Assembly (NCBI GenBank): GCA_027490195.1
Contig: JAIXYN010000098.1
Location: 1-64,000 of the forward strand
Direction: 5' to 3'
DNA length: 64,000 bases
Source: Verrucomicrobiaceae bacterium
GTDB lineage: Bacteria > Verrucomicrobiota > Verrucomicrobiia > Verrucomicrobiales > Verrucomicrobiaceae
A model generated the notes under the pieces. That model had not been told where the DNA came from. It saw nothing but the letters and a program-made list of their open reading frames with translations, and did not search any database. Positions 4,470 through 53,970 of this stretch are shown one piece after another (the stretch's first letter is position 1; the number at the start of each line of letters is the position of its first letter). A program made the position numbers and the translations under genes.

Positions 4470-5096
4470 TTAGTCTTCTTCAGCCGGTTCCCATAGCTTT
4501 TCCGCAGCGGGCAGCAGTGCTGATGAACCGGGCGGCACCAGAGCGATGACCAGATCCACCGGGATGATCACGCCATCGAGATCGCGGCGGAAATTGCGTG
4601 CGTGGGCATCCGTGATGAGAATGCCATCCCGTTGGCGATACCACGTCACTCCATGCACTTCGGGATTGATGATGTGGGCATCGGCCACCCGCTCAAACCC
4701 ATGGGCGTTGAAAAACGCCTCCGCATCCTCCAGGGTGGCAGGCAGGCTTTCATCCTCAGGGATGAAGGGCTGCTCCACCGCCATCTGTGGATCGCGGTCA
4801 GAGCCGGTCACCTTGCCCAAGTAATGGGTACGCATCCCGAAAACAGCCGTCATCACCGCCCAGCGGCGTAGGTACTCTGAGGGTAGCGCCGCCCGCATCA
4901 TGAGGCGGGTTTTGTTCTGAAAGGTGCGTGGGTCGAGCAGCTTCGTCTCGTCCATGATCCTGCCGTAGAAGCCAGGCAGGGTGTGTTTGATGACGGCTTC
5001 TGACTGATCAGGAATGAAAACCGTGTGCTCTCCGCCAATGAAGGAAGGCGGATAGTCCGGAATCCCGACTTCAAGCTCTTCTAAAAGCCGACTCAG
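4470..5096 (-). CDS. polyvalent-protein-kinase-like protein, probable CTG start
   Basis: The first ATG is at 4955 and would give 161 residues, but recognisable family sequence continues upstream in the same frame: FIGGEHTVFIPDQSEAVIK, a kinase N-lobe-like strand with Lys, then TLPGFYGR. No ATG, GTG or TTG occurs in frame upstream to about 5330. A CTG at 5096 overlaps the TGA of the small upstream ORF as CTGA, mimicking an ATGA coupling, and gives 208 residues. The C-terminal half has QPFIPEDESLPATLEDAEAFF and the catalytic-like ITDAHARNF...IIPVDLVIA, resembling the Ser/Thr/Tyr kinase-like domain of phage polyvalent proteins. The target is unknown. Alternatives are a 5'-decayed gene or a frameshift. 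Compare 51565-52236. Confidence 0.65.
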   Translation of the reverse strand: MSRLLEELEVGIPDYPPSFIGGEHTVFIPDQSEAVIKHTLPGFYGRIMDETKLLDPRTFQNKTRLMMRAALPSEYLRRWAVMTAVFGMRTHYLGKVTGSDRDPQMAVEQPFIPEDESLPATLEDAEAFFNAHGFERVADAHIINPEVHGVTWYRQRDGILITDAHARNFRRDLDGVIIPVDLVIALVPPGSSALLPAAEKLWEPAEED

Positions 5097-5242
5097 CTCA
5101 CTCGCGCGGGAGGCGGGGATGAGCTTGCCCGATTGGCAGCCAAAATGGAGCGAATGGCCTGCTCCCGCGAGACGCGCGGCTGATTGGAGCAGATCGCGAA
5201 CAGCTTTTTTGGATCCGTGATGATGACCGCTTTGGGCTTCAT
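5093..5242 (-). CDS. small hypothetical protein coupled to the kinase-like gene
   Basis: A 49-residue ORF (MKPKAVIITDPKKLF...) ends with a TGA that overlaps the putative CTG start of the kinase-like gene. An in-frame ATG six codons upstream (5260) is an alternative start. No domain is recognised. The repeated layout, small ORF followed by overlapping kinase-like gene, also occurs at 51387-52236, though the two small proteins do not look alike by eye. It could be an antitoxin-type partner, or the detached N-terminus of a frameshifted gene. Confidence 0.4.
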   Translation of the reverse strand: MKPKAVIITDPKKLFAICSNQPRVSREQAIRSILAANRASSSPPPARVS

Positions 5243-5377
5243 AGGCAGTACGAATAGCATGAGTGCCGCATATCCGCCAACGGGAAAAAGTCTGCCTAGG
5301 GAAGACTGATTCCCCGGTTGAACATCCTCCCGCCCTGCGCTTCTCTCGGGCGTCTTACCCCCAATCACTCTCTTTTC

Positions 5378-6780: not shown

Positions 6781-7713
6781 ATGACAAAGCTCTTCATCAG
6801 CCATGCATGGGAGGATAAAGCCGATTTGGTGGAACCTCTCGTGCGGGCTCTTGGAGAAGAACCAGACTTTGAAGTTTGGTATGACAAACACTCCCTGACT
6901 ATGGGAGACGGGCTGCGCGAAAAAATCAGCCAAGGATTGAGGGAGTGCGACTACGGGGTCGTTGTATTGAGTAAATATTTCTTCGCAAAAAAATGGCCTC
7001 AAAATGAATTGGACGGTTTGCTTGAGCTTGAGACAGCCCAAAGGAAACTAATATTGCCAATCTGGAAAAATGTTACCAGAGAAGACATCATGGCCTTTTC
7101 GCCAATTCTTGGCAGTCGGCTTGGTGTTCAAGCTAGTGAAGGTGTGACAGCTTTGGTTTCTGAAATTAGACGAGCCGTGCAAGCTGGAGATCGAGTTGCT
7201 TCGTTCTCGCCGTGGGACTCTCTTGCCGCAAAATTTCATTCTCTAGGCAAAGACTTGGAACATGAGGCAAAAGCAAACAAACTATCCTCTTCGAAAGAGG
7301 GAGTTGCCTTGGTCGAGTCATCGGCAAAAGATGTAATCGACATGATGGCATCAAGATTAAACCAACTTGCTTCCGGAACTTCCTCGCTCGAATTTAGGAT
7401 AGTGAAGGGTAATGATACAATTGAAATTGACTGCCCCTTACGAATTCAAGCTTGCGGCCAATATAGCAACCCCAGTTGGTACGGCGTGAGCAAAGCCTCT
7501 TTAAATTTCAAGGTTTCTAAAGACAAAGGTTTCTCTGGCGCCTCTAGACGGGATCCTATTACTCTTTCTAATTTAGAGGCACGGTGTTGGTTCGGTCCTG
7601 ATAATGAAGTTGTGTGGAGGATCGGGACGGATTGTGTTTTGAGTTCAGAACAACTCGCAATGCGTTTTATTGACGATTTGATTACGGCAATCGATAAAGC
7701 CCGTCCTCGCTGA
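6781..7713 (+). CDS. TIR-domain protein with uncharacterised C-terminal domain
   Basis: A 310-residue protein. Residues 1-130 form a bacterial TIR domain: MTKLFISHAWED at the first strand, then VWYDKHSLTMGDGL, and WPQNELDGL with E76 in the position of the NADase catalytic glutamate. Residues about 150-310 form a separate domain (LEFRIVKGNDTIEIDCP...) that I cannot assign and that may sense a ligand. Many bacterial TIR proteins degrade NAD+ or make cyclic-ADP-ribose-type signals in antiphage defence. The gene is visibly AT-richer than its neighbours (7381-7440 has 24 G/C in 60), which suggests horizontal acquisition. No other defence gene is adjacent apart from the small gene at 7828. Confidence 0.85.
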   Translation: MTKLFISHAWEDKADLVEPLVRALGEEPDFEVWYDKHSLTMGDGLREKISQGLRECDYGVVVLSKYFFAKKWPQNELDGLLELETAQRKLILPIWKNVTREDIMAFSPILGSRLGVQASEGVTALVSEIRRAVQAGDRVASFSPWDSLAAKFHSLGKDLEHEAKANKLSSSKEGVALVESSAKDVIDMMASRLNQLASGTSSLEFRIVKGNDTIEIDCPLRIQACGQYSNPSWYGVSKASLNFKVSKDKGFSGASRRDPITLSNLEARCWFGPDNEVVWRIGTDCVLSSEQLAMRFIDDLITAIDKARPR

Positions 7714-51386: not shown

Positions 51387-51599
51387 ATGTCATTTGATCC
51401 TGCTGCCATTCAACTGCCTCCACTCGGAGTTGAGACGCGCATGCCGCCGCAGAATCGGCGTGAGCTGTCATTCGAAGAGGTATATCAGCAGGTGCGCCGT
51501 CATTTGAAGGATGATGTGGCCGGAACAATGTCGGTGCAAATGAAAGCCCAGATCAACGGCAGCCATGCTCACACAGCGCGAGTTTGCACGGCTGGTTGA
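51387..51599 (+). CDS. small hypothetical protein coupled to the kinase-like gene
   Basis: A 70-residue protein (MSFDPAAIQLPPLGVETRMP...). A helical part, LSFEEVYQQVRRHLKDDV, is visible. No family named. It overlaps the kinase-like gene by 35 bases. This repeats the layout at 4470-5242 and might be an antitoxin-like or regulatory partner. Confidence 0.5.
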   Translation: MSFDPAAIQLPPLGVETRMPPQNRRELSFEEVYQQVRRHLKDDVAGTMSVQMKAQINGSHAHTARVCTAG

Positions 51600-52236
51600 T
51601 GGTCCGTCGTTGGATCGCGAAATCGACCGCCTTACGAAAAAGGGCGGCGGTTGGCTTCAGGCGGCCCAGATACTCAGCCGCAGGGTTAACTGTACCTTGG
51701 ATTGGGAGGAATTAGGGCCTTCAGGTTCACGCTACCAAGTCTTGGGCAGTCGTGGCGAGGCGGTGCTCTTTTGGGACAGTCACCTGAAGAACTGCATCGT
51801 GAAACTACGTGGCCGCGAGGAGAACGGCTATGGCACTGCAGGCTTCGGCTGCATCCTTCTGCGCAATGAGCGCGGCATGATCGACTACGGGCCGGGGACC
51901 CTTGAGCAGGCGCTGGAACGCGAGCGTCTGAGCTGGGTTCATCTCGGCTTTGGCTGTGTGTTCGAAGATGTCATTGGCGATGTCTCAGGACTGCTTCTGG
52001 CACAGGCATTCATCAGTGGCTCTGCGCCCACCGAGCCTGAAATCCATGCGTGGATGACACAGCACGGCTGGGAATCCTTGGCGGAAGCGCGCGACGTGTC
52101 TGTCACACTGCGTCAGCATGCCTGGCGGCGTGGCAAGATCGGTGCCTTTGACGCCAATGAGACGAACTTCATCAAGAGCGATGTGGACGGTCAGTTGTAC
52201 CCGATTGATCTAATCGTTTGGACGCTGCCCGAGTGA
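51565..52236 (+). CDS. polyvalent-protein-kinase-like protein
   Basis: A 223-residue protein. Residues 1-45 are helical. A kinase-like N-lobe strand with lysine is at KNCIVKLRG (about K80). The C-lobe contains LAQAFISGSAPTEPEIHAWM and the catalytic-like FDANETNFIK (D196, N201) followed by GQLYPIDLIVW, comparable with ITDAHARNF...IPVDLVI in the gene at 4470. The family is seen in phage polyvalent proteins and as stand-alone genes. Target unknown. A hairpin terminator follows. Confidence 0.72.
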   Translation: MLTQREFARLVDGPSLDREIDRLTKKGGGWLQAAQILSRRVNCTLDWEELGPSGSRYQVLGSRGEAVLFWDSHLKNCIVKLRGREENGYGTAGFGCILLRNERGMIDYGPGTLEQALERERLSWVHLGFGCVFEDVIGDVSGLLLAQAFISGSAPTEPEIHAWMTQHGWESLAEARDVSVTLRQHAWRRGKIGAFDANETNFIKSDVDGQLYPIDLIVWTLPE

Positions 52237-53314: not shown

Positions 53315-53551
53315 TTACTTCTCGTCCCCTGGCATCGGCGGCACATCCGGCACCATGGCCAGAACCTCGCTGAGGCCGCCTTTACGGCCGCGTGCAGCCC
53401 GGACTTCGATGCTATCACGAACTTGCCAGGCGGAGATCTGGGAGGAGAGCGCCAAGGCGACGATCTGATCCACCGAGGTGCTCTCCTTCTCTGCCGCATC
53501 AGCAATGATACGAGCGAGGAAGTCTGGGATGCTGGCGGAGATGGTTGTCAT
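53315..53551 (-). CDS. ribbon-helix-helix-like antitoxin (second gene)
   Basis: A 78-residue protein, MTTISASIPDFLARIIADAAEKESTSVDQIVALAL: a strand followed by two helices, as in CopG/Arc-like antitoxins. Its start overlaps the PIN toxin stop as ATGA, so the order is toxin then antitoxin, the reverse of the usual VapBC order. The acidic C-terminus (VPDVPPMPGDEK) would bind the toxin. Confidence 0.72.
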   Translation of the reverse strand: MTTISASIPDFLARIIADAAEKESTSVDQIVALALSSQISAWQVRDSIEVRAARGRKGGLSEVLAMVPDVPPMPGDEK

Positions 53552-53970
53552 GGCGACTGACGTACTATGTCCAGAAAAGTCTTGGGATCAACCACGCGAA
53601 CGGCGGGGAGCCGGTCTGCAGGGAAATGCCGGACATTGTGCGTGACAAGATAATCGATCTTCGACTCCATGGCTAGCTGGGCGAGAGGCTCGTCGTCAGG
53701 ATCAGGCAATGCAGGCTTCCAAGAGGCCGATGGTTTGAAGGATTGCGCCTCCAAGCAAAGTTCATCGAGGAATTGTTCGATCCAAACATGCGAGAATCCC
53801 AGAGGAACCAATTCTCGCTTCAAAATCTCTTCATATTCAGCCAAGACCGTATTGCTCAGCAACAAGGTGAACTCTCCGAGCTCGAGCCTTTTCATGATCT
53901 CAAATGACGCCCCATTCCGCGAACGAAGCGCGGAAAGGACGACATTGGTATCGAGAATGGCTCGAATCAT
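53548..53970 (-). CDS. PIN-domain toxin (COG1569 type)
   Basis: A 140-residue PIN protein. D7 is in AILDTNVVLSAL, E46 in LAEYEEIL, an acidic PDPDDEPLAQLA cluster follows, and LVTHNVRHFPAD is the C-terminal strand. It is a predicted endoribonuclease. It is the first gene of the pair and precedes its antitoxin. It lies 10 bases upstream of nothing else on that strand; its own 5' end adjoins the pyruvate carboxylase 3' end (10 bases), so read-through from that gene is possible. Confidence 0.85.
   Translation of the reverse strand: MIRAILDTNVVLSALRSRNGASFEIMKRLELGEFTLLLSNTVLAEYEEILKRELVPLGFSHVWIEQFLDELCLEAQSFKPSASWKPALPDPDDEPLAQLAMESKIDYLVTHNVRHFPADRLPAVRVVDPKTFLDIVRQSP

What the first reader, a model, noticed from the sequence alone, without database searches (positions are those of the whole stretch)
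51387..52236. Second small-ORF plus polyvalent-kinase-like module
Two loci 46 kb apart share the layout of a small ORF overlapping a kinase-like gene with the DxxxxNF...PxDL core. A repeated two-gene arrangement suggests a functional unit, possibly a kinase-type toxin-antitoxin or phage-response module not yet described.
Basis: inference. Interest (0 to 1): 0.6.

Follow-up and report, generated by a model that had tools for sequence, protein, structure and literature searches.

The report
Kinase genes with overlapping small partner
A stripped-down bacterial protein kinase is encoded together with a tiny protein whose gene overlaps the start of the kinase gene in another reading frame, and this pairing recurs beside dozens of related kinases, which suggests a kinase and its dedicated regulator, perhaps a toxin and antitoxin.

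Summary
At 51387-52236 a 70-codon ORF overlaps a 223-codon kinase gene by 35 nt. In the bacterial family, all 15 places (window included) with upstream sequence carry the pair. The small ORF is under purifying selection (dN/dS about 0.16). The kinase is C-lobe-less and homologous to Kinase-PolyVal (PF18762), though Pfam itself does not hit it. At the first locus the conserved small ORF is 5093-5242 (-). A small ORF in another frame was accepted at 83 of 114 PolyVal kinase loci (62 by HMM, 21 by group); 11 of 11 groups show a dual-coding signature. The small proteins share a short helical core. Genome searches with it led to kinases at 36 of 50 new places, 6 weak. No library family covers it. 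Most likely it is the kinase's cognate regulator, probably an antitoxin-like inhibitor; inhibition and toxicity are inference. At the first locus a dnaX-like A_AAA_AAG suggests, but does not prove, -1 frameshifting.

The parts
51387..51599 (+). small partner gene of locus 2, 70 aa; conserved core LPPxGxxxRxPPxxxRxLSxEExYxQVRRxLKDD...MSVQMK
   Evidence: dN 0.283, dS 1.756 over its non-overlapping part
51565..52236 (+). kinase of locus 2, 223 aa; E65, K80, Q147, D196, N201, D215 conserved; no C-lobe
   Evidence: AF2 model; kinase folds in PDB
51565..51599 (+). 35-nt overlap of the two genes in different frames
5093..5242 (-). small partner gene of locus 1, 49 aa (MKPKAVIITDPKKLFAICSNQPRVSREQAIRSILAANRASSSPPPARVS); an in-frame ATG lies further upstream at 5260
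4470..5203 (-). kinase reading frame of locus 1 as conserved in relatives; its open frame runs to 5351 but the first ATG/GTG/TTG is at 4955, inside the conserved domain
   Evidence: PF18762 24.6 bits, cut-off 27
5204..5210 (-). A_AAA_AAG heptamer in the small frame; possible -1 frameshift site into the kinase frame
   Evidence: A_AAA_AAR in 11 of 13 relatives with TDPKK; inference

Best explanation
The locus is a two-gene module: a C-lobe-less protein kinase of the Kinase-PolyVal type and a 50-75-residue, mostly unstructured partner with one helix, encoded at or across the 5' end of the kinase gene in another frame. Shown by sequence: the pair is conserved, the partner evolves as a protein, similar partners recur with widely diverged kinases, and the kinase catalytic residues are kept. 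Inferred: the partner is made from the same mRNA and binds and restrains its own kinase, as HipS restrains HipT. When the partner is lost or titrated, the free kinase phosphorylates a cell (or phage) target and arrests growth. The overlap ties the synthesis of the two together and makes it hard to lose the regulator without damaging the kinase.
For: Pair at 15 of 15 testable places, window included. Small ORF dN/dS about 0.16, like the kinase. Dual-coding signature in 11 of 11 groups, 54 loci. A small-protein HMM built without locus 2 finds the locus-2 small ORF in 12 of 13 loci at E 4.6e-5 to 4e-3; profile-profile E 1.7e-5 over 21 columns. A genome search with the small profile leads to a kinase at 36 of 50 new places, 30 strong and 6 weak (one further place, L213, was already known and is dropped). 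Catalytic K, D, N, D plus the family's E and Q conserved in 57 kinases. Kinase fold. Traits shared with TA modules: regulator-then-effector overlap, several paralogues per genome and patchy presence in close relatives, and a PIN_3 gene with a small overlapping ORF about 1.1 kb away. Precedent: HipS, a small protein encoded just upstream, neutralises the kinase HipT (PMC8262856, passages).
Against: No experiment shows toxicity or inhibition. The small protein has no recognised DNA-binding domain and no confident fold alone (pTM 0.29). Decay does not discriminate: at locus 2, 13 places have both genes intact; 4 have an open small ORF with the kinase broken or missing (G027, G052, G020, G054); 2 have a kinase remnant or none and a late stop in the small ORF (G026 C91, G053 C6, seen only as search rows); 1 has both damaged (G051); 0 have an intact kinase with a broken small ORF. 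But the kinase is the larger target. Small ORFs without a detected kinase occur at 14 of 50 new places (one of them at a contig end), which fits orphan antitoxins but also plain decay or another role. A C-lobe-poor kinase such as OspG is reported to be activated by a binding partner (title of PMC3585378 in a listing). 31 of 114 kinase loci have no accepted small ORF.
Confidence: 0.45

Rival explanations
1. The small protein is an obligate activator or adaptor: it completes or positions the C-lobe-less kinase, or brings it to its substrate.
For: The kinase lacks a C-lobe. Its closest solved folds include the mini-kinases OspG and NleH, and OspG is reported to be activated by binding ubiquitin (title only). 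No intact locus-2 kinase with upstream sequence lacks the small ORF.
Against: Small ORFs without a detected kinase exist (14 of 50 new places). Sequence alone does not separate activation from inhibition.
Confidence: 0.25
2. The small ORF is mainly a leader for translational control of the kinase; its peptide has no function of its own.
For: Start layouts suggest translational coupling or start choice: kinase ATG 10 nt upstream of the small ATG, TTG kinase starts 13 nt upstream, or kinase starts inside the small ORF.
Against: Purifying selection at the amino-acid level and a peptide core shared across kinases that are mostly 13-30% identical to the window kinase are not expected of a pure leader.
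Confidence: 0.12
3. The small-frame similarity is a by-product of a conserved kinase N-terminus or of RNA structure; there is no small protein.
For: In most groups the two frames share the DNA, so conservation in one frame can leak into the other. Openness of the frame alone is weak evidence: mean chance 0.50 under synonymous shuffling of 60 loci.
Against: At locus 2 most of the small ORF (178 nt) lies outside the kinase gene and still has dN/dS about 0.16. In overlaps, kinase third positions become conserved in 11 of 11 groups and first positions (the small frame's third) are the more variable in 9 of 11. 0 of 1303 control segments match the small HMM at E<0.1.
Confidence: 0.05
4. The pair is a domesticated cassette of phage polyvalent proteins that acts against rival elements or host proteins rather than as an addiction module.
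For: Iyer et al. place this kinase mainly in (pro)phage polyvalent proteins and describe, near one in Verrucomicrobium spinosum, smaller ORFs coding for other polyvalent-type domains (PMC5512222, passages). Long kinase-bearing open frames occur in the same genomes.
Against: No relative in phages, plasmids or viral contigs with the locus-2 kinase. Flanking ORFs are shared only within subclades (e.g. 6 of 17 loci) and look chromosomal by eye.
Confidence: 0.13

Closest known systems
Kinase-PolyVal (PF18762), Iyer et al. 2017, PMC5512222
   Same: C-lobe-less kinase fold, conserved E before strand 2, Q at the end of the N-lobe, catalytic K/D/N/D; profile-profile E 1.3e-15 with relatives found by PF18762
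   Different: Locus-2 kinase has no Pfam hit; the genes here are stand-alone with an overlapping small gene, which the passages I read do not mention
HipBST / HipJS kinase modules (PMC8262856)
   Same: Small protein encoded just upstream of a Ser/Thr kinase; HipS neutralises HipT (passages)
   Different: HipS resembles the about 100-aa HipA N-subdomain 1; the partner here is shorter, modelled as one helix, and matches no HipS-like model; the partner gene overlaps the kinase gene; no third, HipB-like gene was identified at locus 2 (neighbours, Pfam of some)
OspG / NleH mini-kinases
   Same: Among the closest solved folds (Z 8.8 and 8.2 over 127 and 122 residues)
   Different: Secreted effectors without such a partner gene (recalled); 17-18% identity

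Membership tests
Kinase-PolyVal (PF18762) | Pfam gathering score (27 bits) | tested here: not met
   Locus-2 kinase: no hit. Locus-1 fragment of 161 aa: 24.6 bits. 45 of 57 aligned relatives hit at E<=0.01
Kinase-PolyVal (PF18762) | Homology to members found by the Pfam model | tested here: met
   hhalign A1 vs A6, probability 98.6, E 1.3e-15
Kinase-PolyVal (PF18762) | Loss of the C-terminal subdomain with intact active site | tested here: met
   223-aa model ends just after the strand following the DFG-like Asp215; D196, N201, D215 conserved
Kinase-PolyVal (PF18762) | Glu before strand 2 and Gln in the last N-lobe strand | tested here: met
   E65 (>=90%) just before strand 66-71; Q147 invariant, in strand 142-148
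Kinase-PolyVal (PF18762) | Insert between catalytic His and Asp | tested here: inconclusive
   H185 and D196 are 11 residues apart in locus 2; equivalence of the His not established
Type II toxin-antitoxin module | Toxin arrests growth when expressed alone | not testable with these tools
   needs expression
Type II toxin-antitoxin module | Antitoxin binds and neutralises the toxin | not testable with these tools
Type II toxin-antitoxin module | Two adjacent, often overlapping genes, conserved as a pair | tested here: met
Type II toxin-antitoxin module | DNA-binding, autoregulatory antitoxin (common, not obligatory) | tested here: inconclusive
   no DNA-binding domain hit; low-confidence model with one helix
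HipBST-like kinase TA | HipA-type kinase and HipS-like antitoxin | tested here: not met
   No HipA- or HipS-type Pfam or NCBIfam match for the kinases or small proteins scanned

The most novel reading that the evidence does not exclude
A whole class of kinase toxin-antitoxin modules in Verrucomicrobiota is overprinted. The antitoxin is written in another frame over the start of the toxin gene, and one translational decision on the mRNA (closely spaced start codons, weak versus strong start, or a -1 slip at A_AAA_AAG as at the window's first locus) sets the ratio of inhibitor to kinase.
Probability: 0.2. Interest if true: 0.85.

Novelty: new variant of a known kind. Interest (0 to 1): 0.62.

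Why it matters
Out-of-frame overlapping small genes are easily missed in annotation, so a partner that accompanies dozens of kinases can stay unseen. If it regulates them, PolyVal kinases become a testable system: each kinase comes with its own candidate inhibitor or activator. The overlaps are also a natural set for studying how two proteins evolve on the same DNA and how start choice or frameshifting sets their ratio.

Tried and rejected
Rejected or not used as proof: (1) the 58-codon ORF 4898-5074 as locus-1 partner (another frame; the conserved one is 5093-5242). (2) Openness of the small frame: mean chance of being open 0.50 over 60 of 66 loci (L092, L032 and loci with a stop in the kinase-frame stretch were dropped). 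(3) Asymmetric decay at locus 2 (counts in the Against line): the kinase is the larger target. (4) Frameshifting as the rule for all groups: several have an ATG, GTG or TTG kinase start near or inside the small ORF. (5) Phage, plasmid or viral homologues: none found. (6) PDB relatives by sequence: none credible. (7) A PIN-like reading of 1871-2293: no Pfam hit.

Weak points. The iterated small HMM (62 of 114 loci) was trained on the same loci. More independent support is the leave-locus-2-out test and the new places, but some new places are close relatives of known pairs, so their kinases are not fully independent finds. I inspected 51 small-profile places; one (L213) lies beside a kinase already and is dropped, leaving 50; weaker matches, whose list was also cut, were not inspected. 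The reverse HMM test (locus-2 model against the others) is weak, best E 0.003. 31 of 114 kinase loci had no accepted small ORF. Groups C, D, H and J have small ORFs that the HMM does not link to the rest; they are accepted by dual coding (19 loci) or similarity to those (2 loci). In one search two loci with a broken kinase frame (L032, L092) were included with stops read as X, and L065 and L138 were measured only over a short tail. Foldseek gave only one match at E<=0.001. Paper searches for Kinase-PolyVal, PF18762 and overlapping kinase/antitoxin genes showed nothing describing this pair in the rows listed; the library is open access only and long lists were cut.

Full report
What is in the window. 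At 51387-51599 (+) lies a 70-codon ORF and at 51565-52236 (+) a 223-codon ORF; they overlap by 35 nt in different frames. The 18 named relatives of the kinase come from Verrucomicrobia assemblies, mostly labelled Verrucomicrobiaceae or Prosthecobacter, two labelled Akkermansia, so the window is probably from that family.

Is the pair real? A search of 68 genomes of the family with the kinase gave 17 places at 61-100% identity in 16 genomes, window included. Two of these start at a contig edge. The other 15 all have the small ORF directly upstream, overlapping the kinase start; in two of them the kinase is broken. The small ORF aligns in 14 rows with 18 invariant residues. Over its non-overlapping part dN is 0.283 and dS 1.756, against 0.231 and 1.378 for the kinase: both evolve as proteins under similar constraint. 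The C-terminal tail in the overlap is free to change (pN/pS 1.8), and in two genomes it stops six residues early.

What the kinase is. Pfam, PHROGs, PADLOC and NCBIfam give no hit for the locus-2 kinase. A profile of its 14 closest members matches relatives found by the PolyVal model with probability 98.6 and E 1.3e-15. Across 57 relatives Q147, N201 and D215 are invariant and E65, K80, G168 and D196 at least 90% conserved. These fit the features that Iyer et al. list for PolyVal kinases: glutamate before strand 2, glutamine in the last N-lobe strand, intact active site, no C-terminal subdomain (PMC5512222, passages). The AlphaFold2 model has mean pLDDT 79 and pTM 0.73, above 90 for most of residues 101-223 and low before residue 60. 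The rows shown for the PDB are kinases or kinase-like throughout. Foldseek's best is NleH1 (E 5e-4, the only match at E<=0.001); VIA-align puts DAPK1, OspG and NleH1 near the top (Z 8.2-9.1 over 122-135 residues). The kinase claim therefore stands.

The first locus. The kinase at 4470 to about 5200 (-) is a remote relative (PF18762 24.6 bits, below the 27-bit cut-off). Its conserved small ORF is 5093-5242 (-), found in the same layout in several other genomes. It overlaps the kinase frame almost completely.

The layout is general. I collected 114 kinase loci from the family and phylum, 13 of them of the locus-2 type. By eye many stand-alone kinases had a 50-75 codon ORF in another frame at their 5' end. 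An iterated HMM of these finds a small ORF at 62 of 114 loci at E<1e-3, while 0 of 1303 control segments (reverse strand or downstream) match even at E<0.1; the HMM was trained on these loci. Outside the locus-2 group all 49 such hits are in the same relative frame. A further 21 loci belong to groups accepted by dual coding (19) or similarity to these (2), and 31 have no accepted small ORF.

Dual coding. In 11 of 11 groups (54 loci) kinase third-position divergence falls from 0.43-0.62 downstream to 0.07-0.32 in the overlap, and in 9 of 11 the kinase first position, which is the small frame's third, is then more variable than the third (in one of the nine only slightly). This is what two constrained frames on one DNA would give, and it is hard to get from chance ORFs.

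One small-protein family. A model built without locus-2 sequences finds the locus-2 small ORF in 12 of 13 loci at E 4.6e-5 to 4e-3 (the last at 0.1); the reverse search is weak (best 0.003). Profile-profile comparison gives probability 78 and E 1.7e-5 over 21 columns, NRRELSFEEVYQQVRRHLKDD against SRRSITSEEFRQQVSAHLGRP. Locus 2 matters here because its small ORF is mostly free of overlap. Searching the 68 genomes with the small profile gave matches at E<=0.05 in 56. Of 50 inspected places not next to kinases already known, 30 have a strong kinase match beside them (26 intact-looking, 4 broken or partial), 6 a weak one and 14 none, one of these at a contig end. No library family covers it: 0 of 36 members in PHROGs and NCBIfam, 1 of 36 with a lone E 0.005 hit to DUF7219 in Pfam. 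Alone it is predicted as one helix (29-44) with the rest extended, pTM 0.29, as might be expected of a protein that folds on a partner.

How translation may be arranged. The kinase start differs by group. In group A an ATG lies 10 nt upstream of the small ATG in 7 of 9 loci, a GTG at the same place in the eighth and an ATG 7 nt upstream in the ninth. In group C a TTG lies 13 nt upstream in 5 of 5. In group B ATG, TTG or GTG sits at one fixed place inside the small ORF in 4 of 5 (the fifth has a broken kinase frame). At locus 2 in the window the ATG is inside the small ORF. In the locus-1 group four of 13 loci share an ATG 58 nt upstream of the TDPKK codons. The window copy and four others (one with a broken kinase) have no ATG, GTG or TTG in the kinase frame before the conserved N-terminal motif, three have only a TTG downstream of the site, and one was not scorable. 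Eleven of 13 keep A_AAA_AAR in the small frame, in the phase that would shift -1 into the kinase frame; the one with CCG AAG AAG has the upstream ATG, and the other exception, CCA AAG AAA, has a broken kinase frame. For comparison CCA is 14% of proline and AAA 50% of lysine codons in these kinases. Against it: three loci are near-identical, the lysines may be kept for both proteins, a more distant relative (L248) shows neither the A run nor a canonical start near the small ORF, and the window copy could simply have lost its kinase start. I hold frameshifting as a lead.

What it does. The evidence supports a kinase with a dedicated partner. By analogy with HipS/HipT (PMC8262856, passages) and by TA-like traits (overlap, paralogy, patchiness), I think the partner is an inhibitor, confidence 0.45. 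An activator is the main rival, because OspG is reported to be activated by a partner (title of PMC3585378). Nothing here measures toxicity, binding or phage effects.

Novelty. The kinase family is known; the overlapping partner family and its generality appear to be new, as far as the open-access searches show. On checking, the count of new small-profile places was mended from 37 of 51 to 36 of 50 and the decay counts were recast; neither changes the odds.

Noticed in passing
window 53315-53970 (-): PIN_3 domain gene 53548-53970 (E 1.3e-19) followed on the same strand by a 78-codon ORF 53315-53551 that overlaps it by 4 nt, about 1.1 kb from the kinase pair: looks like a separate PIN-type toxin-antitoxin pair.
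   Followed up: partly
window 6781-7713 (+): TIR_2 domain protein (E 2.3e-18) about 1.5 kb from the first kinase locus, beyond a gene that looks by eye like dihydrolipoamide dehydrogenase; possible defence gene.
   Followed up: partly
L240, L241, L242, L243, L252, L259, L260, L263: Open small-partner ORFs without a detected kinase next to them; orphan regulators or recent losses.
   Followed up: partly
L022/L051 (G051 C226): The first residues of the small ORF run in frame into a piece of the kinase, as if a deletion had fused them.
   Followed up: no
L073, L076, L077: In three genomes of another family of the phylum, kinase-bearing open frames of 308-505 codons carry an overlapping small ORF MKDxGxxSYRWNPP..., similar in all three.
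   Followed up: no
L024, L027, L030, L242, L252: Kinases or orphan small ORFs run into or lie beside genes that look by eye like oligopeptide ABC-transporter ATPases in several genomes.
   Followed up: no
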